Position numbers and translations under genes: made by a program. Source: Betaproteobacteria bacterium (lineage in GTDB: Bacteria > Pseudomonadota > Gammaproteobacteria > Burkholderiales > Burkholderiaceae). Taken from it: a stretch of DNA of 62,684 bases. Positions 15,257-55,070 of the stretch are shown in pieces. The notes beneath the pieces are model-generated. The model worked only from the letters and a program-made list of their open reading frames with translations. It was not told the DNA's origin and searched no databases. Numbering within the stretch: the stretch's first letter is position 1; each line of letters begins with the position of its first letter. The stretch spans positions 1 to 62,684 of the forward strand of contig RFXC01000003.1 of assembly GCA_009921765.1 (NCBI GenBank). Direction: 5' to 3'.

Positions 15257-18200
15257 TTACAGCACGGGCAACGCTGGCACCGCCGGCAAAGCAGACTGCG
15301 GCAGGTTGGAAGCGAGCCAGACCGTCGGATCGGTTTCGTTTGCAGGCAGCGCGGCAACATTGAACAGACCCACGGTACCGCTCACCTCATTGGCCACCGC
15401 AAGCATTGGCAAACCGGTCGGGCTACTCGACGCGGGAATCAGGAGCAGACCCTCTGGGCCAAGGTCTCCCCCGGAGATGGCCTTGGTGGTGGAATCCTGA
15501 GCCGGCGTCTTGGTGAAGTCACGCGTGTTCTCGTAGCTCAGGAAACTGGGGCGATACGGGTCCGAGACATCGTACACCGCCACGCCACCAATCCGCTCGA
15601 GTCCGACAAACGCCAGCACCTTGTCGCCGACCACTGCGGTCGTCACACCCTCGGGCTCGGGGCCCTTGTCGTCGCTACGGTTGTCAATCGAATTGCTGGT
15701 GTGGTTGGCGTTGAAGTTCGAAGGAAGCACTTCAGCAACCAGACGCTCGAGTTGGTCGCCACTGTCGTAGATCCGGTTTCCGTAAGCGTCCAGGATCGAG
15801 AATGAACGCCCCCCAAAGGCCACCAGCTTGTCGAGATCTCCGTCACCGTCAACATCAATCCCATTGGTGATGACCTTCAGATCGCCGTCCAGAAGTGCAG
15901 CACCGGCTGTCGCGTCGGCCACCGGCTTACCGCTCCCTCCGAGATCCTTGACCTGTACCTCGTCCACCGTACGCGAATCGCCCTCGTTGGCCGTGATGTA
16001 GTAAGTCTTCCCATTCGTACTGAATGAGGCGATGGCATCCGGCATGTAGGCGCCATAGAGCTTGGGGCTTGTCAGGCTGACAGCGGGGATCGTGCCGGAC
16101 GGCTGACCGGTCGTGTCGTTATCCGCGTCGATTTTGTTGGCGCCGTTGAAGCCAAAGATTCCGAGGCCGATCGTTTCCGTGCCAACGCCATTGACGCCAA
16201 AGTCGTTGTCGTTGATCACCGCGAGGCCACCATCAGGCAACAGGGCCAGTCCCTCAGCCTTGTCATTCGGTGTGTAACCCAGCGACGGCAGGTTGGCGAC
16301 CCGTTCCTTGTAAACAGGGTTGATGCCTGCGGCGAGCATCTCATCCACGGTCAGCACCTCGAGCGTGGTCTTGCCCGTGGGCAAGGTGGGCGTGGCCGTG
16401 AGCAGGTTCGTCGCGCCGCGAAGATCGATCTCGTAGAGGACCTTCTTCGCTTCGGGCGCCACTGACGAATCACGCTCGAACACAAAGATTGTGCCGGTCG
16501 CGGGGTTGAACACGGCATCACCGATCTTGTCGAGCGCGCCCAGGTTGAGCGCGGGACGCTCCAGCAGGTAGGCGAACTCGGCAATCACCGTTCCCTTGGA
16601 CGCGGCGGCCGCAAGCGTGCCACCCTGGGGGAGCGCCGTGCCGACAGCAAGATCGCGCATCGCCATCACTTCGATCCGCACCAGCGGCCCGCCCGTGTCG
16701 GTGGTGTTGCCCGACACACTATCAAGGGGGCTCTGCACGAATGCGAAGATCAGCCCCTGCGCCTCATTGACCGCCAGCGCTTCGAAACCGCGATTGGCCT
16801 GACGCTTGATGAGATGGGCGGGCAGCGTTTCGGTGCCGAAGGTATCGGTGGTGTCTGGCGTGAGTGCCGCCGTACCTGAGGGGACATAGCGCACCACCAT
16901 CTTGCCGGTGGCGTCGAACTCGTAGATGGCCGGCCGATATTCATCGACCATCCACATATTGCCGGCAGCCGTGCGGTAGACACCCTCCAGATCGGCCCCC
17001 ATGGGATCGTAGGAGAGCGTCTTGTAGCCCAGCGTGACGCCGCCCGACGTGAACGTTCCCGTGCGGGTGGCGTCGGTAGCGGGGACGATCTGAACCGGCT
17101 CTTCATCAGTGCCGGGGATGTTGGGCAGCCCGGTGAGCGGCGTGCCGTCAGCTCGAGTAAGCATCGTCGTGCCGGCAATCGAGACCTGCTTGGTCACCGG
17201 ATCGAATTCGAGCGTGGCAACGCGTGCCTGGTAGCTGGGCAACACGAAGGGCCGCTCGAGCGCAGCATCCGCATCAACATTCACCGGCTCGCCGTTAGGG
17301 CCGCGGTCGCTCACCGTCAGGAAGCGCCACTTGCCGTTGCTGGTCCCGATGTACTGCAGACCCGAAAAGCCGCCGGACGGGACGGACTTGCCGAACGCAT
17401 CCGTACCGATGGACGAAAGGTCTGAGCCCGTCATGGTGTCGTAGGCGGTCATCACCAGATCGCCCCGGGCGTGATTTTTGTAGCCCAGCGGGGCGATATC
17501 AACGATCTTTGCAGTCGCTGCGCTGAGGTCAAGTACAGCAAGCGCGTTGTTTTCCTGAAGCGTGACCATCGCCTGCTTGCCATCGGGCGATACGGCGATG
17601 TACTCGGGTTCGATATCGTTCGATGCGCTGACACCCGCGGCAATCCGGACGCCACGCTCGCGAAGATAGCCCTCCTGCCCGTTGTAGGCGGTGAAATCGA
17701 GTTGCTGGACGGTGGCGTTCGCAATCGCTGTGGCGGGGTCGCTCCCCAGGGTCACCACGGTAATGCCGCCGTTCGCAACGAACGGGCTGCCACCGTTGTA
17801 GTACACATCGGTGGAGCCGCGCTCGTTGATCGACTCGGCCTCGTTGGCAACCAGCACCTTCTTGCCGTCGGGCGTAAAGGTCACCATATCCGGACCAACC
17901 CCGGCATCCAGGGCGCGCGCGCCGGCCGGCGCCGCCGCCGTGGACGACACCGCGACATCGGCTTTAAAGAGCACCAGCTTGCCCGCCGCCGTGGGGTTGG
18001 CATCGGCCAACGCCACAGCGACCGTGCCGTTGGAAACCGCAACCGAGTTCACCTGCGGGGTGCTGCCCGCGGTCGTGGCATAACCCTTGAAGTCAAGCCT
18101 GCCCACCAGCACCGGATTAACGGGATCCGACAGGTTCAGCACCTGGATCTCTGCTGCGACCGCATTTACCATGAACATGCGTTTCGAGGTCGGGTCATAG

Positions 18201-21200
18201 CCGACGATCTCGGCACCACCTGCGTTGTACACATTGGTGCTGAAGGTGCCCACCTTGCTCAGCGCAAGCTGGGAGGGCTGAAGCACCGACTCGGCACGCA
18301 TGTTCAGATTCTGGATTCGCTCGTCAAGCGCGGCTGGCGTGTCAGCCTGATCGAACGCGGTGGAAGCACCGCCAAACACGGCCTTCATGTAGGCCTGGAA
18401 TACGCCCTGCTCAGCCGAGATCGGCGTGCTCGCCGTGGAGTACTGCTGGGTGGTGGCCGCAGCGCTGTAGTCAAGCGTCTCGGGCACCGGTTGGCTAAGC
18501 GTGTAGCCGCCACCCGCCTTGTCGAGCAGATACCGGAAATTCTCGCCATTGGCCTTCGTGGGATAGCTGTCGCCGCCCTGCGCGAGGAAGCTCAAGGTGA
18601 CCATCGAAATTGCCGCCGGCGCGCCCGCCAGCTTGGTTCCGTTGTCGTACAGGCCGATTCGTGAACCGTCATCGGCCACCAGGGCAATATCCATCACCCG
18701 CGAGCCCGCAGCAAAGTCGGGATCCCAGGAAAAGCTCATGCCTCCCACCTGCGGAAACCGTCCCTGAAGCGTACCGGCCGCAACACCGTGCTCAAGAATC
18801 GCCTTGAGGCCTTCCGGCGTGGTGTCAAACATCATCAGCTGGTTATTGAAGCGCAGCGAATTCTCCAGATCGAGCTGCGACACGCTGCCGTCGGACGGCG
18901 GAAGCTTGTCAACCGTACCGTCCGCCTTGGGATCAGAAATTGTGCCGATCTGAGCCCGGATGCCGCCACCGTTCTTGAGCGACACCACGCGGGTGCTTGA
19001 TGCCGCAGTCCCGAGTGCAAGTTTGGCCGCATAGGTATTCGCATCGGCCGACAGGTTGCCGAGATTGGTTTCCTCGGATCGCACCAGCGTGCGTTCGCCC
19101 TCAAGGTAAACCGACGCGTATCCCGCGACATTTCCGTCTTTTACCGTGATGACGGACTGCACCGCATCGGTCAGTGTCTTCACTTTGCCGCCGCGGGTAC
19201 CGCTGGCAAATGCGGTGGTTGCAAGCGCGGACTCAGCCACGCCCCATGCCGCAGCGACATTGGCATCGGTCGCCGCGTAGGCACCATTGACCGCAGCATT
19301 GGCCGTGATGCTGGTTGCGATGAGTTTGCCGGCTTCGTCGAAGTCGACAACCATCCGGCCGAGATAGGTGTATTCGTTGTCGGTACTCACGACCAGCGTC
19401 GTCGTGCCGTCCTTGTCTTTCGCGACGAACGGATAGGTCTCGGCAAAAGCGGCCGAATGCCCGCCCATCGCAACCGCCTTGTCGTTTGCATCGCCCATCC
19501 GGGTGTTGGAGCCCGCTGCAATGACGATGTCGACGCCGGAGAGTTTGGTTGCGAGCAGCTTTTCGTTGCCAACGATTTGAAGGTGCGACAGCAGCACGAT
19601 CTTGTTGACGCCCTGCGCGGTAAGGTCATCGACCACCGGCTGAAGTTGCGCGGCGAGGAGCGTCATGTCGTCGGCTTCGCCATTCGCACCGGGGCCAGTG
19701 GGAAAGCCCTTCACCTCGGTTCCGGAAGGCGACGAGATCGCCTCCAGTATCTGCGTGGTCACGCCGACCAGTCCGATCTTCGCGCCGTTTTCGATCAGAA
19801 TGGCTGAAGGAACGATCTTGCCCTTCTGCGCGGAAGCGAGTTCGAGTCCTGAGGTGGCCGTCGTATCGACGTAAATCGACTTCAGGTCGGTGTCGCCGGA
19901 AAAATCCAGATTGGCGCTGATGTGGGGAAATTGCGCGCCCAGCGCGCCGCTGGACCCTTTGATCGCGTCGCTCAGTACACGCGAGCCCAGATCAAACTCG
20001 TGATTGCCGATCGCCGAGGCTTCAACGCCGATCGCGTTGTGAATCGCGATATCAACGGCTGCAATCGGCACGGTTGCGGTGGCTGCGAGTGCGCCGCCGC
20101 CGGCGCTATTGAGCGCAGCAATCACAGAAGCATCGGTTCCCGCAGCCAGGAAGGGCCCGGGGATGAAGTTGTCTCCACCCACCAGCGTAATGCTGTTCGG
20201 GTAAGCATCCTCGAACTTGTCGACCAGAGCTGCGAGTCGGGGCGCGGTCGTAGGCGCGAGCGTACCCGCTTCTCCGTCAGAAAAATGAAGCAGTTGCAGG
20301 GTAAAGGTCTTCTGCGTCAACGCGGTTTTCTGCCCCGCTGCAACGGAGTCCACCGATGTGGCTGCGTCGATTTTCGAGGACATCGCAGCCAGGTTTTCCA
20401 ACGCGCTCACTGCCGCGGCTTTCAGATTGGCGCTATTGACGCTAATGCCGGCAACCTTGGCCTGCGTGGCAACCGAGTTGATGAGCGTCTCAGCTGTAGC
20501 CGTAATCTTGTCGGCGGCAAGCGCACCCGCCGTCATCGCCTTCGCAACTTCGGAAAAGATGCCTGCTGCGATCTCGTCGTGCTTGTCGGCGGCCACGCCT
20601 GCAACCTGCTGAACCTTGACGGTGAGGCTGTTGACCATCGTGGCAACGATCACACCCGCCTTCTGCACCGCGAGCGCGCCGGCCTGTCCGGCGGCTGCCC
20701 CCGCAACGGGATCCAGCGTGGTCAGATTCACCGTACCCTTCAGCGCAGCAAGCCCCACTGCGTCAAGCACCTGATCCTGGGCGGCTGCCAGGCTCAAGCC
20801 CTTGCTCTGCATCACCTCGGTCACCAGCGTGGTGAGCGGCGTGACTGCAGTGGATCCGGCCGGGGCCTTGAGAATGCCGGTGAAGTCCACACCGGTGGTA
20901 ACGTCGCGTCCGCCGAACGCGACCACCGGGCCGTCGACCCCCTGGGGCAAAGTGAAATTCCCCTGAGCATCCGACTGCGTAATCGGCTCGCCGGCATCGG
21001 GCTGGCCGTTGCGGTTCGTATCGATGAAGACTGTTGCGCCAGCGATGTAGCCATCGACCACCTTGCCGGTATTGGTGGGTGGGCTGTTCTTATCGCGGGT
21101 GGCGGCGATGAGTCCGAGTGCGCCCACGCCAACCAGCACGCCGCCGATCGCCGGCGTTACACCGGCCGCCCCTGCGGCGGGTGCAGCAGCATCGGTCGCA

Positions 21201-21520
21201 GCGGCCGCGCTGGCAGCCTGCGCCTGCGCGAGATCAGCCACAGGCACTGCGGATACAGCAGCGCTCGCCTCGATGGCGGCGTCCTCCGCATGGATGTCCA
21301 GCTCTTCTGCAAGTCGGTCGGCGTCTTTGGACTTCGCACGTACGTTCACGGCCGCCGAAACAGGCGCCGCTCCGGTGTCGACCGAGACCTCCAGCGCGTC
21401 AGCGTTCACAGGTACCGCTCGCGCAGGGGCGTTATTGGATGGGGTTTTCCTGGCAGCAGTCCGTGCCTGAAACGGGGCAGCGACAGTGGCGGGAGTGGTC
21501 GGCGACGTGGACTTGGTCAT
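15257..21520 (-). CDS. Giant exported 5'-nucleotidase / phytase-like multidomain phosphatase
   Basis: Protein of 2087 aa. Order: Ala-rich N-terminus (1-120) with no standard signal peptide; one hydrophobic helix ('AIGGVLVGVGALGLIAA', about 123-140); a carboxypeptidase-like/Ca-binding stretch ('VFIDTNRNGQPDAGEP', about 165); a 5'-nucleotidase-type metallophosphatase (about 405-735) with 'HFSDGEAG', 'GGDNFIPGPF' and 'IGNHEFDLG'; a 5'-nucleotidase C-terminal domain (about 800-1035); then a choice-of-anchor-I-like beta-propeller from about 1085, interrupted by an esterase-like phytase domain (about 1370-1700) and resuming to the C-terminus. The first metal motif reads DGE instead of DxH, a variant I recall from this subfamily. 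It should release phosphate from nucleotides or phytate outside the cytoplasm. The ATG at 21520 is preferred over a TTG 12 bases upstream. A Pho-box-like site lies 45 bases upstream. Confidence 0.85.
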   Translation of the reverse strand: MTKSTSPTTPATVAAPFQARTAARKTPSNNAPARAVPVNADALEVSVDTGAAPVSAAVNVRAKSKDADRLAEELDIHAEDAAIEASAAVSAVPVADLAQAQAASAAAATDAAAPAAGAAGVTPAIGGVLVGVGALGLIAATRDKNSPPTNTGKVVDGYIAGATVFIDTNRNGQPDAGEPITQSDAQGNFTLPQGVDGPVVAFGGRDVTTGVDFTGILKAPAGSTAVTPLTTLVTEVMQSKGLSLAAAQDQVLDAVGLAALKGTVNLTTLDPVAGAAAGQAGALAVQKAGVIVATMVNSLTVKVQQVAGVAADKHDEIAAGIFSEVAKAMTAGALAADKITATAETLINSVATQAKVAGISVNSANLKAAAVSALENLAAMSSKIDAATSVDSVAAGQKTALTQKTFTLQLLHFSDGEAGTLAPTTAPRLAALVDKFEDAYPNSITLVGGDNFIPGPFLAAGTDASVIAALNSAGGGALAATATVPIAAVDIAIHNAIGVEASAIGNHEFDLGSRVLSDAIKGSSGALGAQFPHISANLDFSGDTDLKSIYVDTTATSGLELASAQKGKIVPSAILIENGAKIGLVGVTTQILEAISSPSGTEVKGFPTGPGANGEADDMTLLAAQLQPVVDDLTAQGVNKIVLLSHLQIVGNEKLLATKLSGVDIVIAAGSNTRMGDANDKAVAMGGHSAAFAETYPFVAKDKDGTTTLVVSTDNEYTYLGRMVVDFDEAGKLIATSITANAAVNGAYAATDANVAAAWGVAESALATTAFASGTRGGKVKTLTDAVQSVITVKDGNVAGYASVYLEGERTLVRSEETNLGNLSADANTYAAKLALGTAASSTRVVSLKNGGGIRAQIGTISDPKADGTVDKLPPSDGSVSQLDLENSLRFNNQLMMFDTTPEGLKAILEHGVAAGTLQGRFPQVGGMSFSWDPDFAAGSRVMDIALVADDGSRIGLYDNGTKLAGAPAAISMVTLSFLAQGGDSYPTKANGENFRYLLDKAGGGYTLSQPVPETLDYSAAATTQQYSTASTPISAEQGVFQAYMKAVFGGASTAFDQADTPAALDERIQNLNMRAESVLQPSQLALSKVGTFSTNVYNAGGAEIVGYDPTSKRMFMVNAVAAEIQVLNLSDPVNPVLVGRLDFKGYATTAGSTPQVNSVAVSNGTVAVALADANPTAAGKLVLFKADVAVSSTAAAPAGARALDAGVGPDMVTFTPDGKKVLVANEAESINERGSTDVYYNGGSPFVANGGITVVTLGSDPATAIANATVQQLDFTAYNGQEGYLRERGVRIAAGVSASNDIEPEYIAVSPDGKQAMVTLQENNALAVLDLSAATAKIVDIAPLGYKNHARGDLVMTAYDTMTGSDLSSIGTDAFGKSVPSGGFSGLQYIGTSNGKWRFLTVSDRGPNGEPVNVDADAALERPFVLPSYQARVATLEFDPVTKQVSIAGTTMLTRADGTPLTGLPNIPGTDEEPVQIVPATDATRTGTFTSGGVTLGYKTLSYDPMGADLEGVYRTAAGNMWMVDEYRPAIYEFDATGKMVVRYVPSGTAALTPDTTDTFGTETLPAHLIKRQANRGFEALAVNEAQGLIFAFVQSPLDSVSGNTTDTGGPLVRIEVMAMRDLAVGTALPQGGTLAAAASKGTVIAEFAYLLERPALNLGALDKIGDAVFNPATGTIFVFERDSSVAPEAKKVLYEIDLRGATNLLTATPTLPTGKTTLEVLTVDEMLAAGINPVYKERVANLPSLGYTPNDKAEGLALLPDGGLAVINDNDFGVNGVGTETIGLGIFGFNGANKIDADNDTTGQPSGTIPAVSLTSPKLYGAYMPDAIASFSTNGKTYYITANEGDSRTVDEVQVKDLGGSGKPVADATAGAALLDGDLKVITNGIDVDGDGDLDKLVAFGGRSFSILDAYGNRIYDSGDQLERLVAEVLPSNFNANHTSNSIDNRSDDKGPEPEGVTTAVVGDKVLAFVGLERIGGVAVYDVSDPYRPSFLSYENTRDFTKTPAQDSTTKAISGGDLGPEGLLLIPASSSPTGLPMLAVANEVSGTVGLFNVAALPANETDPTVWLASNLPQSALPAVPALPVL

Positions 21521-21564
21521 GGCGGGCCTCAAACAATGGAAGCCCTGAACGCTAGTGACTGCTT

Positions 21565-21615: not shown

Positions 21616-22299
21616 TCAAAGTAAGTCGTCGCTTGAGATCTCCATCCAGGTCGCAAATCTTGCACTGACCTCCATAGCACGGTCACCGTAGCCCCCCTCG
21701 AAGAGGGCGCAGTCGACGCCAGCGGCGAAGGCGCAGGCGACATCGATATGGCTGTCGCCGGTGAAGAGCGCATCCACTGCATTGCCTCGCAGCCGCGAGA
21801 TGGCGGCGAGGAGCGGCTCCGGGGCTGGCTTCCTGACGCCACAGGTATCAGCCCCGACTACCACATCGAAGTACCCGTCTAGGTTCTTCCTGGCCAGCAA
21901 CTCCCGGGCCTCAGCCTCGGCCTTGTTGGAACAGATCGCGAGCCGGGCGCCCCGCGCATGAAGGGCAGCCAGTACCGACGGAACTCCCCGATACACGCGG
22001 GCGAATTTTCCCGATATCGAGCGATAGTGGACGCGGTAGGATTCGAGAAGTGGTTCGAACCTGTCTTCGGAGGCGCTCGCGGCAACGAGGGCCGCCCTGG
22101 CGCTCGCCTCGACTCCGCCATGAAGCGAAGCTCGTACTAGTTCACGTCCGACAGGCGGGAGCCGATGGTCGTACAGTGCAAGGTTAAGCGCTACGGTCAG
22201 ATCCACAATTGTATCGATCAGCGTTCCGTCCAGATCGAAGACCTGAAGTGGCCGTGCATAGAGCTCTGCGAGAGCACGGCTCTGTGGCTGCGCGTTCAA
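21616..22299 (-). CDS. HAD-superfamily phosphatase (phosphoglycolate-phosphatase-like)
   Basis: HAD hydrolase of 227 aa with motif I 'VFDLDGTLIDT', motif II 'ICSNK', a lysine in 'RKPAPEPLLAA' and motif IV 'FTGDSHIDVACAFAAG'; the helical cap sits between motifs I and II. The start appears to be a TTG that overlaps the phnC stop as TTGA, so it is translationally coupled to the phosphonate-type ABC genes. Substrate unknown; the context suggests a small organic phosphate brought in by this operon. I see no specific evidence for phosphonoacetaldehyde hydrolase (PhnX), though it belongs to the same superfamily. Confidence 0.82.
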   Translation of the reverse strand: MNAQPQSRALAELYARPLQVFDLDGTLIDTIVDLTVALNLALYDHRLPPVGRELVRASLHGGVEASARAALVAASASEDRFEPLLESYRVHYRSISGKFARVYRGVPSVLAALHARGARLAICSNKAEAEARELLARKNLDGYFDVVVGADTCGVRKPAPEPLLAAISRLRGNAVDALFTGDSHIDVACAFAAGVDCALFEGGYGDRAMEVSARFATWMEISSDDLL

Positions 22300-23060: not shown

Positions 23061-23062
23061 GT

Positions 23063-23890: not shown

Positions 23891-23906
23891 GATGGTGTCC
23901 TGCTAC

Positions 23907-27754: not shown

Positions 27755-27780
27755 GAGTTGATCTCTACAGGTCTGGAGAA

Positions 27781-28770: not shown

Positions 28771-28799
28771 ATGACGCCCGCGTGACGGGCTCATGACGG
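28771..28799 (-). promoter_or_regulatory. Candidate PhoB box with three 11-bp-spaced half-sites
   Basis: On the minus strand three half-sites, CCGTCAT, CCGTCAC and GCGTCAT, occupy 28799-28793, 28788-28782 and 28777-28771, each exactly 11 bp apart. They match the CTGTCAT half-site at 6, 5 and 5 of 7 positions. A CATAAT hexamer (28773-28768) could be the -10. The array points to the TatT-DctP-QM-PhnDEC-HAD run starting at 28728. Confidence 0.6.
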
Positions 28800-42765: not shown

Positions 42766-42782
42766 GTCGCGAGAACAAGCGG

Positions 42783-43634: not shown

Positions 43635-43638
43635 GACC

Positions 43639-47148: not shown

Positions 47149-47277
47149 TGCGAACCTCCGGTCAACCTCCGTGATCGTCGCGTTTCAACATTGCAGCAAT
47201 GTGTCTGATTCGTTGCGGAATTGTTTCGGTTGGCGCTGGTCTTCGATTCGTCATCGCACAGCGCGATACTCGATCGC

Positions 47278-47897: not shown

Positions 47898-49124
47898 TTA
47901 CACCGGCCGCGTTTCAGAGGCGCGCAGCCGCGTCACTCCGGACGATACCTGCAACGGACGTTCACCTTCGATCAGCGCCTGCACCATGACCTCGAACTGC
48001 GAAGCAATTGCCGGCCAGTCAAGCTGAGATACCGCTTCGCGAGCGCCTTGGCCCATGGATCGCCGTCTTTGAGGGTCGGCCGCCAGGGCACGCGCAGAGT
48101 TGACAAAGCCCCGTGCGTCCTCCGGATCGCTCAGCCATCCGGTCGACCCGCTTTCGATCAGCTCGGCAGCCGCGGCATGACGAAACGCAACCGTCGCCAG
48201 TCCACTTGCCATCGACTCAGTGACAACGTTTCCAAAGGTCTCTGAGAGGCTGGGAAACAGGAACACGTCGGCGCTCGCGTAGTGCCGCGCAAGTTCGGTC
48301 CCGGTCTGTCGCCCGGCGAAGATCGCATCCGGACAGGCCCGGGCGAGCATCTCGCGCATTGGACCATCACCGACAAACACAAGCTTTGAGTCCGGTGCGA
48401 AGTCGCACATGCCCCTGAACGCTTCGAGCGCAAGCTCCAGATTTTTCTCTGGAGCAAGCCTTCCTACGCAGAGGGCAACCGGCGTATTGGGATGCGCACC
48501 CCAGCTCGCGCGAAGCGCATCACAACGCTTCGCGGGATCGAACAGCCGTGCATCGACGCCGCGGCCGAGTACACGCAGTTTTCGGAAGCCCCGGTTGCCG
48601 AGCTCCTGTCTGAGGGTCGCCGTCGGTACTGTCGTCAGATCGGTCCGGTTGTGAAACGCTCGAAGATACGCGCCAACCGGCGCCGCGAGCCAGGCGAGTC
48701 CGTAGTGCGCCGAGTATTGGTCGAACTGCGTTCGGAAGTCAGAGGAGACCGGGATACCCAGGCGACGCGCAGCCCGCAGCGCCGACCAGCCAAGCGGGCC
48801 CTCGGTCGCAATGTGCACAAGATCAGGTCGCTCCGACCGCCAGCGTCGGACGAGCAGCCGCCCCGCCGGCAAGCCCATCATCATCTCCGGATAGAACGGA
48901 ATCGGTACGCCCTTGAGCTCGGTGACGTGCAGTCGCGATGGATCCACCTCCACCCCCTCCGCTCGGCCGGCTGCATCCCTCGGGCGCAGGCGATACAAAT
49001 CGATACAGTGTCCCCGTTCGAGGAGTCCGCCAATGAGCCTGGACAGACTCATTGCGACGCCGTTGATGTCCGGCGGGTAGGTTTCGGTGACCATCGCGAG
49101 GCGAATGGGCTTCAACGCGCGCAT
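47898..49124 (-). CDS. GT4-family glycosyltransferase (Agt/PimB-like), probable glycolipid synthase
   Basis: Glycosyltransferase of 408 aa with a GT-B fold: N-terminal 'AMVTETYPPDINGVAMSLSRLIGGLLERGHCIDLYRLRP', C-terminal 'CVGRLAPEKNLELALEAF', 'FVGDGPMREML' and the E-x7-E motif 'SETFGNVVTESMASG'. AGGAG precedes the ATG at 49124. Family members make mono-glycosyldiacylglycerol (Agt) or mannosyl lipids. With a PlcP homologue 3.5 kb away, which would supply diacylglycerol, and its own Pho-box-like site, glycolipid synthesis in place of phospholipid is the best guess. Cell-envelope mannosylation is the alternative. Confidence 0.85.
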   Translation of the reverse strand: MRALKPIRLAMVTETYPPDINGVAMSLSRLIGGLLERGHCIDLYRLRPRDAAGRAEGVEVDPSRLHVTELKGVPIPFYPEMMMGLPAGRLLVRRWRSERPDLVHIATEGPLGWSALRAARRLGIPVSSDFRTQFDQYSAHYGLAWLAAPVGAYLRAFHNRTDLTTVPTATLRQELGNRGFRKLRVLGRGVDARLFDPAKRCDALRASWGAHPNTPVALCVGRLAPEKNLELALEAFRGMCDFAPDSKLVFVGDGPMREMLARACPDAIFAGRQTGTELARHYASADVFLFPSLSETFGNVVTESMASGLATVAFRHAAAAELIESGSTGWLSDPEDARGFVNSARALAADPQRRRSMGQGAREAVSQLDWPAIASQFEVMVQALIEGERPLQVSSGVTRLRASETRPV

Positions 49125-49181: not shown

Positions 49182-49199
49182 ACAACAAATCGATGACAG
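49182..49199 (-). promoter_or_regulatory. Candidate PhoB box upstream of the glycosyltransferase gene
   Basis: Minus strand: CTGTCATCGATTTGTTGT. The first half-site is a perfect CTGTCAT; the second matches 4 of 7 with exact 11-bp spacing. It lies 58 bases before the ATG at 49124, in the coding direction, within the 168-base divergent gap to the Mpo1-like gene. Confidence 0.45.
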
Positions 49200-49292: not shown

Positions 49293-49901
49293 ATGAACGC
49301 TTTTTTTGATGAGCTCAACCGGCAGCGCTGGGATGATCACCGCTTCTATCACCACTGCCGGATCAACCAGTCGCTGCACCTCTTCAGCGCCTGTTGCTTC
49401 GTGATCGCCTATTTGCTGCTGCCGTTTGAGCCTGCGTGGTCGGCAATCATCGCCTGGTGCCTGTCGATGACCAGCCGGCAGGCAGGTCACTTTTTCTTCG
49501 AGCCGCGCGGCTTTGACGAGGTCAATCAGGTGACCGACGAGTACAAGGAGGCCGTCAAGGTCGGCTACAACATCCGTCGCAAAATTGTGCTGATGGCAAT
49601 CTGGGTTGCGTGTCCGGTTGCGCTGATCGTCAACCCTTCGCTGGGTGGCCTGATCGAGCCGGCTGCAAGCTTCGCAGAAACAATTCACGACACCGGTATC
49701 GCGTGGCTGTCTCTGGGTGTCGCAGGACTCGTTTTCCGGGTGATGCAGCTAAGCCTCCAGCAATCGCCATTGGTCGGATTTGCCTGGGGTACGAAGATCC
49801 TCACCGATCCGTTTCACGACATCGTGCTCTACCACCGTGCGCCGCTTGCGCTTCTGCGCGGCGAGCGCTACGACCCGATGCATGACGTGACTCAGCGCTG
49901 A
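49293..49901 (+). CDS. Mpo1/DUF962-like membrane protein
   Basis: Membrane protein of 202 aa with about four hydrophobic segments. The ATG at 49293 has AGGAG at 49282-49286. 'FYHHCRINQSLHLFSACCFVIAYLLL' and 'SRQAGHFFFEPRGFDEVNQ' resemble the two His-containing helices of Mpo1-like proteins. Yeast Mpo1 is an Fe-dependent dioxygenase that alpha-oxidises 2-hydroxy fatty acids from sphingoid bases. The match is judged by eye and not strong. Lipid-gene neighbours make a fatty-acyl or sphingoid-like role plausible. It ends at a strong hairpin facing the aminotransferase gene. Confidence 0.6.
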   Translation: MNAFFDELNRQRWDDHRFYHHCRINQSLHLFSACCFVIAYLLLPFEPAWSAIIAWCLSMTSRQAGHFFFEPRGFDEVNQVTDEYKEAVKVGYNIRRKIVLMAIWVACPVALIVNPSLGGLIEPAASFAETIHDTGIAWLSLGVAGLVFRVMQLSLQQSPLVGFAWGTKILTDPFHDIVLYHRAPLALLRGERYDPMHDVTQR

Positions 49902-49949: not shown

Positions 49950-51614
49950 TCAGGCTTTCACGCGCCGCATCACCCCGCGCCGCAGCACTTCCGAGAGAAT
50001 CGATTTACGGATAGCACGGTTGGTGGTTTCAGGGCCCTGCCACCAGCCGTCGGCCTGCATCCGCTTGCAGGCAATAACAAAGCGATCGCAGACTTCGCTG
50101 AAATCCGCTTCGGTGAAGTCGAGACTGAAGATCAGGCGGCCGCTTCCGACCCAGCTAAGTGCCAATCCCTCCGACCGGAGGTAGAACTGCAGCATCCAGT
50201 TGTAGCGCGAAGGGGTGGTGTAGGTGATGGTCCAGACGGTCGACAGGTTGGCGACACGAACCGGCAGGCCTTGCTCACTGAGCCTCTGATTGAGATGAGA
50301 AGCACGACCGTCCCAGAGGTGATCGAGATTGGCATAAAGCGCGCGGATCGGCTGGGTCTGGAGCGCATCGAGAAACGCCTTCATGCTGCCCATGACATAG
50401 GGGTGCGCATTGAACGTGCCGCGCGCAAAGCAGATATCGGCGGGCCGCTCGTCACGGAAACGCTTCATCAGCGCCGCTCTGCCGCACACGACGCCGACGG
50501 GCAAGCCGCCACCGAGCGTCTTGCCGTAAGTGACCATGTCGGCACGAACGCCGAAATACTCCTGCGCCCCACCCGGTGCCAGACGGAAGCCCAGAAACAC
50601 TTCATCAAAGATCAGAACAATGCCGCGCTCGCTGCACACGTCGCGAAGTTGCTCAAGCCAGCGGGTATAGGCGGCACGGTCAAAACCCGCGCGTCTGCCA
50701 CTGTCGACCAGCGACGAGTCGCCCGGGGCCGGCGAGTTGGGGTGCAGCGCCTGCAACGGATTCACCAGCACGCAGGCAATGTCGCGACGCGACCTGAGCA
50801 CCTCGAGGCTGCGCGCATCCATGTCGCGCAGCGTGTAGGTGTCCCGGGGCGGAACCGGGTTGCCCGGTCCGGGCTGAACATCCTCCCACCAGCCGTGGTA
50901 GGCCCCGCAGAAGCGAACCAGATGCGAGCGACCGGTGTGATACCGGGCGAGCCGCACGGCCTGCATCACGGCCTCGGTGCCGCTCATATGAAAAGACACT
51001 TCGTCCAGGCCAGAGATTTCCCGCAGCCGCGCTGCGTTTTCGAGCACGCAGGGGTGATAGGACCCCAGCACACAGCCAAGGCCTCGAACACTCGCGACAC
51101 CAGCCTCGATCGTCGCCTTGTAAAAGTCGTTACCCAGCAGGTTGACGCCATAGGAACCGGTGAGGTCAATCAGCGGATTGCCGTCGAGATCGATCAGATG
51201 AATGCCCTCGCTGCGATCCACGAAGCTGCTTGTCCGAAGGGTTGCAGCAACCCGCTCGGAAAATTGGAAGGGAACGCGGTAGCGCGAGATGAACTGCAGG
51301 TCGGAGATCAGTTCGCGCGCAGCCCGCGTCATGGCAATGCCGTCGGCATAGCGCGCGTTGAACTCGGCTGCCAGGTTCTTGAACGCAGCCTCCCGTCTGG
51401 CGGCCACCTCCGGACCTGCACCGTCACAGGCGAAAAACTCAGCCTCTTCGTAGCGGTAGCCCGGAAGCAGCTTTGCAATTCGCCGCGCGATGCGGGCATG
51501 GCCCGCCAGCGAACGATGTTTGGCGCGCGACAACTGCAGTCTGCGCCACGCAGCCGGCGCGGCCGCTGCCGCAACACCCGCGGCGAGCGCGGAAAGGACA
51601 AAGGTCTCTTGCAT
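49950..51614 (-). CDS. Class-III PLP aminotransferase with N-terminal membrane extension
   Basis: Protein of 554 aa. Residues 1-110 are unusual: a hydrophobic segment (MQETFVLSALAAGVAAAAAPAAW) and a basic helical stretch. Residues 110-550 form a class-III aminotransferase resembling glutamate-1-semialdehyde aminomutase: 'DLDGNPLIDLTGSYGVNLLGND', 'SGTEAVMQAVRLAR', 'GAYHGWWEDVQPG', 'GIVLIFDEVFLGFR' and the PLP lysine in 'MVTYGKTLGGGLPVG'. About 100 residues longer than normal GSAM, and not adjacent to heme genes, so heme synthesis is unlikely. The membrane-anchor-like start and the neighbouring Psd/PlcP/OlsB genes suggest an amino-lipid role. Substrate unknown. Confidence 0.8.
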   Translation of the reverse strand: MQETFVLSALAAGVAAAAAPAAWRRLQLSRAKHRSLAGHARIARRIAKLLPGYRYEEAEFFACDGAGPEVAARREAAFKNLAAEFNARYADGIAMTRAARELISDLQFISRYRVPFQFSERVAATLRTSSFVDRSEGIHLIDLDGNPLIDLTGSYGVNLLGNDFYKATIEAGVASVRGLGCVLGSYHPCVLENAARLREISGLDEVSFHMSGTEAVMQAVRLARYHTGRSHLVRFCGAYHGWWEDVQPGPGNPVPPRDTYTLRDMDARSLEVLRSRRDIACVLVNPLQALHPNSPAPGDSSLVDSGRRAGFDRAAYTRWLEQLRDVCSERGIVLIFDEVFLGFRLAPGGAQEYFGVRADMVTYGKTLGGGLPVGVVCGRAALMKRFRDERPADICFARGTFNAHPYVMGSMKAFLDALQTQPIRALYANLDHLWDGRASHLNQRLSEQGLPVRVANLSTVWTITYTTPSRYNWMLQFYLRSEGLALSWVGSGRLIFSLDFTEADFSEVCDRFVIACKRMQADGWWQGPETTNRAIRKSILSEVLRRGVMRRVKA

Positions 51615-51674: not shown

Positions 51675-51692
51675 TTGACAATCCGATGAAGG
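51675..51692 (-). promoter_or_regulatory. Weak candidate PhoB box upstream of the aminotransferase gene
   Basis: Minus strand: CCTTCATCGGATTGTCAA. Both half-sites match CTGTCAT at 5 of 7, exact 11-bp spacing, 61 bases upstream of the ATG at 51614. It lies in the 85-base divergent gap to psd and is weaker than the other sites, so it may be chance. Confidence 0.28.
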
Positions 51693-51699: not shown

Positions 51700-52554
51700 A
51701 TGCGAAACCCGCTTTCTTACCCGTCGATCAATTTTGCGCTGACCAACCGACTGCCCAGGGCGCTCTGCACGATTGCCTTCGGCCGGCTGAGCCGTATCCG
51801 CAGTCGGTGGCTTGCAGCGGCCCTGATATCTGTCTGGAAACGCTTCTCCGACCTCGACCTGTCTGACTCGCTGCGCAGTGACTTCGACAGTCTCCATGCC
51901 TGTTTCACCCGCGAGCTTCGCCCGGGCGCACGACCCATCAGCCAGGAAGCGGGCACGCTCTCGAGTCCGTGCGATGCCATCATCGGCGCGCACGGCGTGG
52001 TGGACGACATGACCATGCTGCAGGCGAAGGGCATGCCCTACCGCCTCGATGAACTGCTGGGAAGCGCCGCGAGCGCCGAACAGTACCGCGGCGCGACCTA
52101 CGTGACGCTCAGACTGACCGCGCAGATGTATCACCGCTTTCACAGTCCCGCCGACTGCGAGATCGGCCAGGTCGATTATGTGAGCGGTGACTGCTGGAAC
52201 GTGAACCCGCCCGCGCTCGAGCGGGTGTCGCGATTGTTCTGCAGAAATGAGCGGGCAATTCTTCACTGCCGGCTGTCGGGCACCGGTGAGCCGGTCGCGC
52301 TAGTGGCCGTCGCCGCGATTCTTGTCGCGAGCATCCGGCTCCGTTTTGCCGATGTACTGCTCCACCTGCGCTATCAGGGCACGAACCCGATCATCTGCAA
52401 CCATCAGGCCTGCCGGGGCGAGGAACTCGGCTGGTTTGAGCACGGATCGACGATCATCGTCCTCGCCCCGCCAGGCTCGCAGCTTGCCGACCCGCTCGGC
52501 ACGGGCGTACGGGTTCGGATGGGAGAGGTGTTGCTGACGGCGCCGGGGCCCTAG
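51700..52554 (+). CDS. psd: Phosphatidylserine decarboxylase-family protein
   Basis: Protein of 284 aa, normal length for the proenzyme. The Asp-His-Ser processing triad is present: Asp in 'LSSPCDAIIGAHG', His in 'AQMYHRFHSPADCEIG' and Ser in 'WFEHGSTIIVLAPPG', where self-cleavage before the serine would create the pyruvoyl group. The usual LGST reads HGST, so it may be a divergent paralogue with another amino-lipid substrate. It should decarboxylate phosphatidylserine to phosphatidylethanolamine. Its TAG stop overlaps the plcP stop in a shared palindromic CTAG. Divergent from the aminotransferase gene. Confidence 0.85.
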   Translation: MRNPLSYPSINFALTNRLPRALCTIAFGRLSRIRSRWLAAALISVWKRFSDLDLSDSLRSDFDSLHACFTRELRPGARPISQEAGTLSSPCDAIIGAHGVVDDMTMLQAKGMPYRLDELLGSAASAEQYRGATYVTLRLTAQMYHRFHSPADCEIGQVDYVSGDCWNVNPPALERVSRLFCRNERAILHCRLSGTGEPVALVAVAAILVASIRLRFADVLLHLRYQGTNPIICNHQACRGEELGWFEHGSTIIVLAPPGSQLADPLGTGVRVRMGEVLLTAPGP

Positions 52555-53393
52555 TCAACCGACCCGAGCGCGGGCGCGCCTTCCATAAGCGGCTGGCTCG
52601 TTGTCAAAGGCTTGACGCGAAGCCGGTCGGACCAGTCGACGATCTCCAGCCTGCCGTCGTGATGTTCGACCAGCGCTGTGAGGCTCTCCACCCAGTCGCC
52701 GTCGTTGCAATAGAGGACGCCACCGATATCGCGAATCTCGGCCTGGTGAATATGTCCGCAGACCACACCATCAAGGCCGCGGCGACGCACCTCGCGGGCC
52801 ACCGCTTCCTCGAATGCGCACACATAGCTCACCGCACGCTTTACTTTCAACTTGAGATAGCGCGACAAGCTCCAGTAGGGCAGTCCGAGTCGGGCTCGGA
52901 ATCGATTGAGGTGCCGGTTGAATCGCAGCGTGGTCTCGTAGGCGATGTCGCCTGCGACCGCCAGCCAGCGCGCGCACTGGATCACGCCATCGAACAGATC
53001 GCCGTGGGTGACCCAGAGGCGGCGTCCGTCCAGCGTGGTGTGCACACAGTCTTCGTGAACATCGACGCCACCGAAGTTGTGTTCGACGTAGCGTCGGGCG
53101 AACTCATCGTGATTGCCCGGGACGAACACCACGCGCGTCCCTTTTCGGGCCTTGCGCAGGATTTTCTGGACGACATCGTTATGCTCCTGCGGCCAGTACC
53201 ATGATCGGCGCAACTGCCAGCCATCGATGATGTCGCCAACCAGATACAGTGTGCGACACTCATACTGGCGCAGAAAGTCGAGCAGCGGGCCCGCCTGGCA
53301 GCCAGGCGTACCCAGATGAAGGTCGGAGATCCAGACCGTCCGGACCGAGGTGGTTACCTCCGGATCGGCAATCGGGATCAGACCAGGGCTCAT
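52551..53393 (-). CDS. plcP: PlcP-like phospholipase C (UDP-diacylglucosamine-diphosphatase-type metallophosphoesterase)
   Basis: Calcineurin-fold enzyme of 280 aa from the ATG at 53393, which has GAGG nine bases upstream; an ATG 6 bases earlier is too close to it. Metal motifs: 'WISDLHLGTPG', 'LVGDIIDGWQLRRSWYWPQEHNDV', 'FVPGNHDEFARRYV', 'WVTHGDLFD' and 'VVCGHIHQAEI', followed by 'NDGDWVESLTALVEH'. These segments are characteristic of PlcP, which in rhizobia and marine bacteria hydrolyses phosphatidylcholine and phosphatidylethanolamine to diacylglycerol under phosphate starvation, rather than of LpxH. The best Pho-box-like site of the window lies just upstream. Confidence 0.88.
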   Translation of the reverse strand: MSPGLIPIADPEVTTSVRTVWISDLHLGTPGCQAGPLLDFLRQYECRTLYLVGDIIDGWQLRRSWYWPQEHNDVVQKILRKARKGTRVVFVPGNHDEFARRYVEHNFGGVDVHEDCVHTTLDGRRLWVTHGDLFDGVIQCARWLAVAGDIAYETTLRFNRHLNRFRARLGLPYWSLSRYLKLKVKRAVSYVCAFEEAVAREVRRRGLDGVVCGHIHQAEIRDIGGVLYCNDGDWVESLTALVEHHDGRLEIVDWSDRLRVKPLTTSQPLMEGAPALGSVD

Positions 53394-53423
53394 GTCCATG
53401 GGCCTCGATGGTGGAGGAGCCAC

Positions 53424-55070
53424 ATGACCGGTTCGTTAAGGACGAATGACAACGCCGTGACAGAGGTCGAGCTCAAGTTGCAGCTCGACGAATCCGCGGC
53501 CAAAGCGGTCCACGATTGGGTTGTTTCGCGCGGCGGTCGTCGCGAACGGCTTCGGGCGCGCTACTTCGATACCTCCGGGCTCAGCCTCGCTGAATCGGGT
53601 ATGGCGCTGCGACTGCGTTACGAGCGGGGGCGTTGGGTACAAACGCTCAAGGCAGCCCTGCCCGGTGCAATCACCCGGTTTGAACATGAAGTCATTGTCC
53701 AGCGCGGGCGGCCCGACATGCCGCCGTCGCTCGATCCTGCCCGTCACCAGGGCACCGAAGCGGCGCCACTTCTCATGCGCGCGCTCGAGCGCGCCGGCCC
53801 CGAAGGTCTGATCAATCACTTCGAAACCGATATCCGCCGCACTGCGGTCCGGTTTCGCAGCCGACGCGGCGAGGTCGAGGTGTGCCTAGACTCAGGCATC
53901 ATCGCCGCACCGGGCCGTCACCCGCTCCCGGTCTGCGAGATCGAGGTCGAACTCGTAAAGGGCTCACCGCTAGCCGTCACCGACGTTGCGCGCCAGGTCA
54001 TTCGCGGTCATCCCTGCTGGGTTGATCTCGTCAGCAAGGCCGAACGCGGTCATCGGCTTGCCGCGGGCCAGGGGCAGTCGGGTGCGGCAAAGGCCAGGTC
54101 GGTGAGCATTGACCCTCAGGCTGACTCGCTCGCGGCCGCCCGGCTGGTTACCCATGAATGCCGGCGGCAGTTGCTCGCCAACCTCGCGAGCATCGCCTCG
54201 GGCACAAGCGACGATCCTGAATACGTCCACCAGGCTCGGGTGGCAGTCCGACGGCTGCGAACCGCCATCCGGCTGTTCGACGTCGACCCCCTGCGAAACC
54301 TGGACGAGCCGGCCAGGGCGCTCGCCCGGGCACTCGGACTGACTCGCGAGCGCGATGTGCTGCTCGAATCGGTGGCGCCCGCCCTCGCTCTGGCCGGGGC
54401 TCCGACCACCGATCTGGCCGCGCTTGCGAATGCTGGCGATGCGAGGAGCGTGGTCCGCAGTCGGGACAGCCAGGTGTTCGTGGTCGACCTGCTCGCCGGC
54501 GAACTGACCCTCGCAAGGTCGGCGGCCCCCGTTCTGGCCCCGGCCGGCCCTCAGCTCGTCGCCCGACTCTCGCAGTGGCATCGCCAGGTTCGGCGCGACT
54601 CAAAACTGTTTTCCACGCTCGATGACGAACGCAGACATCGCCTGCGTCGGCGAATGAAACGGCTGCGCTACGGCATCGAATTCTGCCGCGCCCTGTGCTC
54701 TGACAAGCGATACCGGCGGTACCTGCAGGAACTCTCCGAAGCACAGGAGGCACTCGGCCGTTACAACGACCTCATCGAGGCGCTCGCGAGCTATCGGGCG
54801 CAGATCGAATCCGATCCGCGGGCCTGGTTCGCGGTCGGCTGGCTCACCGCCGAGGCCAAGGCGCAGTCGTTGCGCTGCGAGACCGCGCTTTCCGCGCTTC
54901 GCAATTTGAAGGCACCCTGGAAAAACCGCTACCTCGCTCCGCAAGCTGTCACAGCCCACCCGGCCGGGATGGCCGATGCCGCCGCTGACCTCGCTCCGAT
55001 AGCCGCACCCGCAACCGCTGCGGGCGCGCCGGCCGAGCATCCTGCGCGCGAGCCCGTCAAGCCAACCTGA
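53424..55070 (+). CDS. CYTH-CHAD protein (triphosphate tunnel metalloenzyme with polyphosphate-binding domain)
   Basis: Protein of 548 aa. The N-terminal CYTH domain (about 10-215) carries the hallmark ExExK as 'TEVELKLQL' and 'RARYFDTSGLSLAESGMALRLRYERGRWVQTLK', an inorganic-triphosphatase-like tunnel. The C-terminal CHAD domain (about 230-510) has 'EYVHQARVAVRRLRTAIRLF' and 'RLRRRMKRLRYGIEFCRAL', basic helices that bind polyphosphate. The tail is Ala/Pro-rich. Likely acts on triphosphate or polyphosphate, which fits a phosphorus-economy neighbourhood. The ATG at 53424 has GGAGG upstream; a GTG at 53457, just before ExExK, is an alternative. Its 5' end overlaps the plcP control region. Confidence 0.88.
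   Translation: MTGSLRTNDNAVTEVELKLQLDESAAKAVHDWVVSRGGRRERLRARYFDTSGLSLAESGMALRLRYERGRWVQTLKAALPGAITRFEHEVIVQRGRPDMPPSLDPARHQGTEAAPLLMRALERAGPEGLINHFETDIRRTAVRFRSRRGEVEVCLDSGIIAAPGRHPLPVCEIEVELVKGSPLAVTDVARQVIRGHPCWVDLVSKAERGHRLAAGQGQSGAAKARSVSIDPQADSLAAARLVTHECRRQLLANLASIASGTSDDPEYVHQARVAVRRLRTAIRLFDVDPLRNLDEPARALARALGLTRERDVLLESVAPALALAGAPTTDLAALANAGDARSVVRSRDSQVFVVDLLAGELTLARSAAPVLAPAGPQLVARLSQWHRQVRRDSKLFSTLDDERRHRLRRRMKRLRYGIEFCRALCSDKRYRRYLQELSEAQEALGRYNDLIEALASYRAQIESDPRAWFAVGWLTAEAKAQSLRCETALSALRNLKAPWKNRYLAPQAVTAHPAGMADAAADLAPIAAPATAAGAPAEHPAREPVKPT
53446..53463 (-). promoter_or_regulatory. Candidate PhoB box upstream of plcP, within the CYTH-CHAD coding start
   Basis: Minus strand: CTGTCACGGCGTTGTCAT. 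Both half-sites match CTGTCAT at 6 of 7 with exact 11-bp spacing, the best site in the window. Another half-site, CGGTCAT (53430-53424), lies 22 bp further on, again in phase. The site ends 52 bases before the plcP ATG at 53393. It overlaps the first codons of the divergent CYTH-CHAD gene. Confidence 0.6.

What the first reader, a model, noticed from the sequence alone, without database searches (positions are those of the whole stretch)
15257..55070. A roughly 40-kb phosphate-starvation island
Continuous run of phosphorus-related functions: giant nucleotidase/phytase-like protein, two PhoD enzymes, two PhnCDE importers, a PhnW-PhnY-PhnA phosphonate route, a GpdQ-like diesterase, OlsB-like, PlcP and glycolipid-type genes, and a CYTH-CHAD protein. 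Each is recognisable on its own. Seeing acquisition and lipid-remodelling genes in one block is unusual, since they are normally scattered. The common theme is inferred from family knowledge plus the Pho-box pattern.
Basis: partly seen in the sequence, partly recalled or inferred. Interest (0 to 1): 0.72.

Follow-up and report, generated by a model that had tools for sequence, protein, structure and literature searches.

The report
Phosphate-starvation supercluster with unstudied lipid cassette
A lake bacterium keeps its tools for scavenging phosphorus next to its tools for rebuilding membranes without phosphorus, and among them is a widely conserved set of four genes, probably under phosphate-starvation control, whose lipid product seems not to be known.

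Summary
The gene run is real. Curated families confirm two PhoD enzymes, two PhnCDE-type importers and PhnW-PhnY-PhnA; OlsB, GpdQ-like and PlcP are family-level only, and no nucleotidase catalytic domain was found in the giant protein. An independent assembly (G005) keeps about 35 kb in the same order; another congener (G004) keeps much of it, rearranged. The full block is genus-level: outside the genus phnA and plcP were near each other in 0 of 13 genomes (9 have them on separate contigs). Nothing suggests a mobile island.

The most interesting part was not singled out: psd, an anchored class-III aminotransferase, an Mpo1-like membrane protein and a GT4 glycosyltransferase (47898-52554). All four occur in 69 of 80 related Burkholderiales loci; ten of the other eleven end at a contig edge. 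The first three recur outside the order, including Sphingomonas, some beside a PmtA-like methyltransferase. Pho boxes sit in the divergent promoters (u227/gt4: 54 of 70 at the 11-bp period, 0-7 at others). PlcP lies within 12 kb in 24 of 37 genomes. The TRAP genes are TPAT-type, proposed elsewhere to carry hydrophobic molecules.

Best reading: a Pho-regulated acquisition plus lipid-remodelling supercluster, with a cassette not found described in ten searches. Its product is unproven.

The parts
15257..21532 (-). Giant 2091-aa protein: 5_nucleotid_C, Phytase-like, choice_anch_I domains; Pho-box-like site at 21565-21582 (15.2) just upstream
   Evidence: Pfam; no family for residues 300-820
21616..22299 (-). 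HAD phosphatase, phosphoglycolate-phosphatase-like (below equivalog cut-off)
22296..24782 (-). phnC1, phnE1, phnD1: first PhnCDE-type importer (PhnC and PhnE over cut-off; PhnD only over the broader TIGR01098)
24880..28728 (-). TRAP system of TPAT type: fused DctQM, DctP, TatT (TAtT domain)
   Evidence: literature passages on TPAT
28771..28799 (-). Three Pho-like half-sites 11 bp apart between tatT and phoD1; the best pair is identical in G005
28840..30477 (+). PhoD-type phosphatase 1
30494..32227 (-). PhoD-type phosphatase 2
32306..32962 (-). Phn-HD oxygenase 1 (TIGR03276 best; 203 vs cut-off 215)
32863..33972 (-). PhnW 2-aminoethylphosphonate transaminase
33988..35091 (-). HpnZ-like phosphonate-associated alcohol dehydrogenase (below cut-off)
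35088..36359 (-). PhnA phosphonoacetate hydrolase
36378..39149 (-). phnE2, phnD2, phnC2: second PhnCDE importer; the model matches phnC2 only from residue 45, so its real start is probably downstream of 39149, which would put the Pho-like site 39043-39060 (13.1) upstream of it
   Evidence: similar site in G005 and G004
39218..40648 (+). PhnY phosphonoacetaldehyde dehydrogenase
40665..41495 (+). Nudix hydrolase with DUF4743
41752..45509 (+). SBP_bac_6 ABC importer (binding protein, two permeases, ATPase), PhnSTUV-like below cut-off
45525..46343 (+). SpdA/CpdA/GpdQ-class metallophosphodiesterase (below cut-off)
46345..47148 (-). OlsB-like N-acyltransferase (below equivalog cut-off)
47221..47871 (+). 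Phn-HD oxygenase 2 (168 vs cut-off 215)
47898..49124 (-). gt4: GT4 glycosyltransferase; best NCBIfam model is GlcNAc-phosphatidylglycerol synthase (140 vs 480), MGlcDAG synthase third
   Evidence: neighbours
49182..49199 (-). Pho box in the divergent u227/gt4 promoter (score 15.4)
49293..49901 (+). u227: Mpo1-like (PF06127, sub-threshold) membrane protein, possibly a non-heme iron fatty-acyl oxygenase (inference)
49950..51614 (-). AT3: class-III PLP enzyme with a likely N-terminal membrane helix; nearest solved relative the aminotransferase domain of mycosubtilin synthase
51675..51692 (-). Weak Pho-box-like site (12.8) in the divergent AT3/psd promoter; better in many relatives
51700..52554 (+). 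psd2: additional phosphatidylserine decarboxylase, HGST motif and D92/H145/H148 kept
52551..53423 (-). plcP-like metallophosphoesterase
53446..53463 (-). Strong Pho box upstream of plcP (19.3), overlapping the 5' end of the CYTH-CHAD ORF as called; a 19.8 site upstream of plcP in G001 and G005
53316..55070 (+). CYTH-CHAD protein (start uncertain; CYTH match begins at residue 50)

Best explanation
The block is a chromosomal Pho-regulon supercluster of a freshwater Burkholderiales genus. Under phosphate shortage PhoB would switch on organophosphorus capture (PhoD enzymes, PhnCDE importers, an aminoethylphosphonate-type ABC importer) and phosphonate catabolism (PhnW, PhnY, PhnA). At the same time it would switch on membrane remodelling: PlcP releases diacylglycerol from phospholipids, the GT4 enzyme puts a sugar on it, the OlsB-like protein contributes ornithine lipid, and the TPAT-type TRAP handles a hydrophobic substrate. 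Within it lies a conserved lipid cassette: an additional phosphatidylserine decarboxylase, a membrane-anchored transaminase nearest to a beta-ketoacyl transaminase, an Mpo1-like protein, and a glycosyltransferase (in Sphingomonas and in six loci outside the order, a PmtA-like N-methyltransferase beside the first three). I think the cassette makes or tailors an amine-bearing membrane lipid during phosphate limitation. Shown by sequence: gene content, synteny, Pho boxes, co-occurrence with plcP. Inferred: PhoB control in vivo, the order of steps, the lipid product.
For: Gene families. Collinear independent assembly G005; rearranged G004. All four cassette genes in 69 of 80 loci, canonical order and strand in 66 of those 69; 10 of the 11 incomplete loci end at a contig edge. 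Pho boxes: u227/gt4 57 of 73 regions at >=15 vs mean 0.8 shuffled; after removing identical regions 54 of 70 at 11-bp period vs 0-7 at seven other periods; 40 of 56 vs 11 of 103 other divergent promoters. psd/AT3 45 of 75 at >=13 vs 1-9, 26 of 47 vs 24 of 103. plcP upstream 15 of 24 at >=13 vs 1-6. In Sphingomonas parapaucimobilis the two best Pho-like sites of a 31.6-kb stretch are exactly the two cassette promoters. plcP in 27 of 29 AT3+ vs 105 of 221 AT3- genomes (Fisher p 1.5e-6, species not independent); within 12 kb of AT3 in 24 of 37 AT3 genomes that have it (39 examined). Neighbours: LplT in 34 of 80, UDP-glucose-dehydrogenase type 18, PhoB type 8, PhoU 8, PhoR type 6, PstC 6 of 80. 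At least two Psd genes in 38 of 39 genomes.
Against: No expression or lipid data. Window-wide Pho-box excess is small. The window's own psd/AT3 site is weak (12.8); against natural control promoters the psd/AT3 excess is moderate (>=15: 11 of 47 vs 11 of 103). At the laxer score >=13 the u227/gt4 test is less clean: 66 of 70 at period 11, but 36 and 29 of 70 at periods 13 and 14. Of the six loci outside the order that have the PmtA-like gene, only L102 and L121 (one genus) show a clear box between AT3 and psd. The whole block is not conserved beyond the genus; phnA lies within the fetched 10-kb flank in only 1 of the 80 named loci (L013, the G004 contig) and, in the 250-genome sample, near AT3 in 1 of 8 genomes holding both (G169). 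gt4 was not found within the fetched stretch in 6 of 20 further loci. GT4, OlsB-like, SpdA-like and PmtA-like assignments are below equivalog cut-offs. The Mpo1 match is weak (17.6 bits vs cut-off 24 for the window protein) and the model has no PDB counterpart.
Confidence: 0.72

Rival explanations
1. Funnel model: the cassette makes no new lipid. Psd2 (and the PmtA-like enzyme where present) turns phosphatidylserine into PE and PC, the substrates PlcP cuts to diacylglycerol for glycolipids; the PLP enzyme and Mpo1-like protein only recycle headgroup or acyl by-products.
For: Conserved Psd active-site residues; PlcP-GT4 pathway known, with PG and PE as PlcP substrates (passages of PMC8231724); plcP linkage; PmtA-like neighbour.
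Against: 38 of 39 genomes already have at least one further Psd. The PLP enzyme's closest solved relative is the mycosubtilin synthase transaminase, not a phospho-lyase; 116 positions invariant in 27 sequences from inside and outside the order argue for a definite reaction of its own.
Confidence: 0.3
2. The block is an accidental neighbourhood: a conserved lipid cassette and separate phosphonate and phosphatase operons that drifted together in one genus, with no joint function.
For: Full block seen only in one genus; phnA and plcP not found near each other in 13 of 13 genomes outside the genus that hold both (9 of them on separate contigs).
Against: G005 (window order) and G004 (another order) both keep phosphonate, plcP, OlsB-like, cassette and TPAT genes on single contigs of 35.4 and 33.6 kb; Pho-like sites at several operons, four of them seen again in congeners (plcP, u227/gt4, tatT/phoD1, phnC2).
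Confidence: 0.15
3. The 40 kb is a horizontally acquired genomic island.
For: Patchy distribution of AT3 (29 of 250 Burkholderiales; 21 of 299 Pseudomonadota) and 53-65% identity outside the order suggest transfer of the cassette at some time; one copy is on a Sphingomonas replicon listed as a plasmid.
Against: No tRNA, GC 58-65% inside the block against 63-68% around it, no integrase or transposase family among the 50 proteins scanned, internal rearrangement in G004.
Confidence: 0.08
4. The Pho-box-like sites at psd/AT3 are -35 elements (TTGACA read on the other strand), not PhoB sites.
For: Many sites end TTGTCAA, the complement of TTGACAA.
Against: The second half-site at exactly 11 bp is kept: 45 of 75 vs 1-9 at other periods; clean CTGTCAT/CTGTCAG in L102 and L121 and TTGTCAT/CCGTCAT in Sphingomonas. 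Boxes at u227/gt4 do not have this ambiguity.
Confidence: 0.12

Closest known systems
PlcP-Agt glycolipid remodelling (P. aeruginosa PA3219-PA3218, PA0842; SAR11; Agrobacterium)
   Same: PlcP-like phosphoesterase, GT4 glycosyltransferase, Pho boxes with the same period, a UDP-glucose-dehydrogenase-type gene nearby in 18 of 80 loci
   Different: In what I read on plcP neighbourhoods (PMC4796936 section 13; passages of PMC8528852 and PMC8231724) partners are agt, other glycosyltransferases and btaBA; no second Psd, class-III aminotransferase or Mpo1-like protein appears there
Pho-boxed OlsB in Burkholderia sensu lato (passages of PMC7814305)
   Same: OlsB-like gene in a phosphate context; that paper predicts Pho boxes before olsB in 21 of 43 species
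   Different: Here olsB lies inside the supercluster; its own upstream test was 6 of 12 loci
PhnW-PhnY-PhnA phosphonate route (Sinorhizobium type, recalled)
   Same: All three enzymes over curated cut-offs, beside a PhnCDE importer
   Different: Accompanied by an HpnZ-like dehydrogenase and two Phn-HD proteins with no 2-oxoglutarate hydroxylase family among the 50 proteins scanned
TPAT system TatT-TatP-TatQM (Treponema, passages of PMC5812351)
   Same: Three-gene TatT, DctP, fused DctQM set
   Different: Here beside a Pho-like site and near lipid genes in several loci
Mycosubtilin synthase aminotransferase domain (6kfm) and GSA aminomutase
   Same: Best sequence (2.1e-46), profile (1.3e-68) and fold match (TM 0.83 by target length, 0.68 by query) for AT3
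   Different: Stand-alone, with about 125 extra N-terminal residues that begin with a likely membrane helix; no NRPS or ACP fused
Mpo1 2-hydroxy-fatty-acid dioxygenase (PF06127)
   Same: All 32 members of the alignment (one sequence entered twice) match at E<=1, best 8.7e-6; conserved histidines
   Different: Below the gathering score in the window protein; the C-terminal part with invariant D172 and D176 lies outside the Pfam match; no solved relative

Membership tests
PhoB (Pho) regulon cluster | Pho boxes, two CTGTCAT-like half-sites with 11-bp period, at its promoters | tested here: met
   strong for u227/gt4 and plcP, moderate for psd/AT3, inconclusive for tatT (2 loci)
PhoB (Pho) regulon cluster | PhoB-dependent induction at low phosphate | not testable with these tools
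   needs RNA-seq
Genomic island (mobile) | tRNA, integrase or composition border | tested here: not met
PhnW-PhnY-PhnA pathway | all three enzymes over curated cut-offs | tested here: met
PlcP-Agt remodelling | PlcP-like phosphoesterase linked to a GT4 glycosyltransferase | tested here: met
   PlcP identity by family and context only
PlcP-Agt remodelling | GT4 uses diacylglycerol and UDP-sugar | not testable with these tools
   sub-cut-off similarity only
5'-nucleotidase | N-terminal metallophosphatase catalytic domain | tested here: not met
   no Pfam family in residues 300-820 at E<=1; only the C-terminal domain
Phosphatidylserine decarboxylase | GST autocleavage motif and Asp/His residues | tested here: met
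   invariant in 15 of 15; roles of the residues recalled
Class-III PLP aminotransferase | PLP lysine and Asp | tested here: met
   K365 and D337 invariant in 27 of 27, (assignment by motif, recalled)
Glutamate-1-semialdehyde aminomutase | over the HemL equivalog cut-off | tested here: not met
   172.5 vs 527.3
Mpo1-like (PF06127) | over Pfam gathering score | tested here: not met
   17.6 vs 24 for the window protein, 20.6 for the Sphingomonas one; best member E 8.7e-6, score not shown
PmtA phospholipid N-methyltransferase | over the PmtA equivalog cut-off | tested here: not met
   132 and 136 vs 390, though it is the best model
TPAT TRAP system | TatT, DctP and DctQM genes together | tested here: met
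LpxH | over LpxH cut-off (for the PlcP-like protein) | tested here: not met
   38-40 vs 134-190

The most novel reading that the evidence does not exclude
The cassette builds a phosphorus-free amino lipid not yet described: the membrane-anchored transaminase puts an amino group on a keto lipid or beta-ketoacyl chain, the Mpo1-like protein and the additional decarboxylase tailor it, and the product is glycosylated in Burkholderiales or N-methylated in Sphingomonas and its like. It would stand in for PE or PC during phosphate starvation across at least two proteobacterial classes.
Probability: 0.28. Interest if true: 0.82.

Novelty: new variant of a known kind. Interest (0 to 1): 0.6.

Why it matters
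Phosphate-driven lipid remodelling has mostly been explained with a short list of genes (plcP, agt, btaAB, olsAB). It is testable in relatives listed as isolates (Variovorax, Limnohabitans, Curvibacter). It also suggests what TPAT transporters may be for. The genus-level gathering of these systems is a convenient natural catalogue of one organism's phosphorus economy.

Tried and rejected
Mobile island: no supporting feature. LpxH for the PlcP-like protein: far below cut-off. HemL for AT3: far below cut-off; sequence, profile and fold searches prefer the mycosubtilin transaminase. Nucleotidase catalytic domain in the giant protein: no Pfam match. Solved relative of the Mpo1-like protein: none by fold at E<=0.001 and only a chance-level hit by profile (0.75). 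Sphingolipid link: in S. parapaucimobilis the cassette lies about 8 kb from serine palmitoyltransferase (907 bits to 2jg2), but none of seven neighbouring genes tested by tblastn occurs in any other locus held, so I treat it as a lead only. Plasmid DNA search for the block: 9 records with scattered 2-5% matches. Plasmid protein search with AT3: one record. Literature: ten searches; no listed title or abstract start pointed to this cassette. That is a statement about an open-access library and these terms only. Read: PMC4796936 passages and section 13, passages of PMC8231724, PMC8528852, PMC7814305 and PMC5812351; all other papers only as listings. Pho-box scores use hand-set weights around the half-site, recalled first and later seen printed as the consensus CTGTCATNNNNCTGTCAT in PMC8528852. 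The upstream test for tatT had only 2 loci and was uninformative: other spacings scored higher.

Full report
What was checked. Pfam scans of 50 gene products over the window and NCBIfam scans of 30 of the block confirm the list, with corrections: PhnD1, the OlsB-like protein, the diesterase and the Phn-HD proteins are matches under their equivalog cut-offs; the giant protein shows phytase-like and nucleotidase C-terminal domains but no recognisable metallophosphatase domain. Flanks are carboxylate catabolism and transport. The window belongs to Burkholderiales by its closest named loci, lake MAGs of that order (one bears the odd label 'Bordetella parapertussis'); its own assembly is not held, and the nearest held genome shares 33% of sampled words.

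Is the block real and conserved? G005, an independent assembly, carries an acetyl-CoA-synthetase-type gene through PhnD1 in the same order on one 35.4-kb contig, with one extra phn-type transporter inserted. G004, about 70% identical at AT3, has plcP, phnY, phnCDE2, phnA, hpnZ, one Phn-HD, the whole lipid cassette, an OlsB-like fragment at the contig end, an SpdA-like gene (48%) and the TRAP genes on one 33.6-kb contig in another order; phnW was not found on it. G001 has the pieces on several contigs; G002 (78% complete) and G003 lack phnA and the AT3 orthologue. Beyond the genus the block was not seen: of 250 Burkholderiales genomes, 21 have phnA and 132 plcP; 14 have both, G001 among them. 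In the 13 others the two are never on one contig within 30 kb: four have both on one contig more than 1.3 Mb apart, nine have them on different contigs. AT3 and phnA co-occur in 8 of those 250 (G001 included) and are about 8 kb apart in one, G169.

The cassette. Psd, AT3, the Mpo1-like gene (u227) and gt4 all occur in 69 of these 80, with psd(-) AT3(+) u227(-) gt4(+) in 66; 10 of the 11 incomplete loci have at most 1.3 kb of contig on the side of the missing gene, the exception being L062, which lacks gt4 with 10 kb in hand. AT3 at E<=1e-100 is found in 29 of 250 Burkholderiales genomes, 18 of 121 genera, and in 21 of 299 Pseudomonadota genomes, 17 of them outside the order and labelled only 'same phylum'. 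In 20 fetched neighbourhoods from both groups psd and u227 lie beside AT3 in 20 of 20 and a gt4 relative (26-52% identical) in 14 of 20 by tblastn. In six, all outside the order, a PmtA-like methyltransferase (132 bits for L108, cut-off 390) adjoins u227. In L105 and L106 the four functions lie on one strand, with the GT4 part in an 893-residue protein. One named alphaproteobacterium, Sphingomonas parapaucimobilis, has psd, AT3, the Mpo1-like protein and the methyltransferase (136 bits) on a 385-kb replicon listed as a plasmid.

Pho boxes. I scored pairs of 7-bp half-sites 11 bp apart. In the window alone the excess is modest. Comparative tests are stronger. u227/gt4: 57 of 73 regions >=15 against a mean of 0.8 in shuffles; after removing identical regions, 54 of 70 at period 11 against 0-7 at periods 8-10 and 12-15; 40 of 56 against 11 of 103 other divergent promoters of the same loci, some of which may be true Pho promoters. 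At the laxer >=13, 66 of 70 against 6-36. psd/AT3: 45 of 75 at >=13 against 1-9, 18 of 75 at >=15 against 0-4; 26 of 47 against 24 of 103 at >=13 and 11 of 47 against 11 of 103 at >=15: real but weaker. plcP: 15 of 24 at >=13 against 1-6, with a 19.3 site in the window and 19.8 in G001 and G005. olsB: 6 of 12 against 0-3. tatT: 2 loci only, uninformative. A stretch inside the AT3 gene gave 4 of 80 at >=13. Among loci outside the order, L102 and L121 (one genus) have CTGTCATGAATCTGTCAG between AT3 and psd, while L103, L104, L107 and L108 have no clear site there. In S. parapaucimobilis the two best sites of the whole 31.6 kb are the two cassette promoters. Related loci are not independent, so the counts measure conservation, not probability.

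Link to phosphorus and lipids. plcP occurs in 27 of 29 AT3-carrying and 105 of 221 other genomes, and within 12 kb of AT3 in 24 of the 37 AT3 genomes (of 39 examined) that have it. Of the 80 loci, an LplT relative lies in 34, a UDP-glucose-dehydrogenase type in 18, PhoB and PhoU types in 8 each, PhoR, PstC and exopolyphosphatase types in 6 each, polyphosphate kinase in 5 (at 40% identity, so response-regulator and kinase counts may include paralogues; one representative of each identified, PhoU). Of 39 AT3 genomes 38 have at least two Psd genes. The TRAP genes of the block are TatT, DctP and fused DctQM; a close DctP relative was found in 6 of 39 AT3 genomes, in 4 of them on the AT3 contig, and in 5 of the 80 loci. 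A review reports that the Treponema TPAT proteins have hydrophobic pores and may move lipids (passages).

What the proteins are. AT3 has a likely N-terminal membrane helix (helix 2-31 in the model); its best solved relative by sequence, profile and fold is the aminotransferase domain of mycosubtilin synthase (E 2e-46, 1.3e-68; TM 0.83 by target length), ahead of GSA aminomutase; the model is fair to good (pLDDT 84, with weak loops at 238-252 and 292-298). That this domain aminates a beta-ketoacyl thioester is recalled knowledge. u227 matches Mpo1-like in 32 of 32 alignment members (one entered twice; best 8.7e-6, window protein 0.0043 and under the cut-off), has histidines 16, 20, 29 and 66 invariant and 175 nearly so, and is predicted helical (pLDDT 89) with no solved counterpart. 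Psd keeps its HGST motif and D92, H145, H148 in 15 of 15.

Mechanism and verdict. I judge a Pho-controlled lipid function of the cassette very likely, the supercluster reading likely, and the identity of the product open. Two models compete: a new amine-bearing lipid, or a funnel that feeds PE and PC to PlcP. Known PlcP neighbourhoods in the paper section I read hold agt, other glycosyltransferases or btaBA. I found no description of this cassette in ten searches of an open-access library, which is not proof of absence.

Noticed in passing
L122:14039-29026 (NZ_CP155753.1, Sphingomonas parapaucimobilis): The psd/AT3/Mpo1-like/methyltransferase cassette lies about 8 kb from serine palmitoyltransferase, with an ACP, an NAD(P)H-binding protein, a GNAT protein, a desaturase and LptFG-type genes around; not seen in other loci held.
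   Followed up: partly
window 32306-32962 and 47221-47871: Two Phn-HD proteins (TIGR03276 best match, both below cut-off) without a 2-oxoglutarate hydroxylase family among the 50 window proteins scanned.
   Followed up: no
window 15257-21532: 2091-aa protein joining nucleotidase C-terminal, phytase-like and choice-of-anchor I domains; its first ~800 residues matched no Pfam family at E<=0.001.
   Followed up: partly
L084:15250-17982 (Comamonadaceae MAG) and loci L055, L071, L079: The cassette lies near phoR-phoB-phoU in L084, and near pstC (L071), polyphosphate kinase (L079) or an exopolyphosphatase type (L055) in others.
   Followed up: partly
L105:1905-8058, L106:496-6659: One-strand run AT3 - 893-residue protein with a GT4 part - psd - u227 in genomes outside the order; in L106 the first ~540 residues of that protein matched no Pfam family.
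   Followed up: no
L011, L023, L024: MAGs titled 'Bordetella parapertussis' in the public records; the label looks wrong for what appear to be environmental Burkholderiales.
   Followed up: no
G005 (L092:10800-14600): An extra phosphonate-type ABC transporter lies between the TRAP genes and phnD1 in the collinear relative.
   Followed up: no
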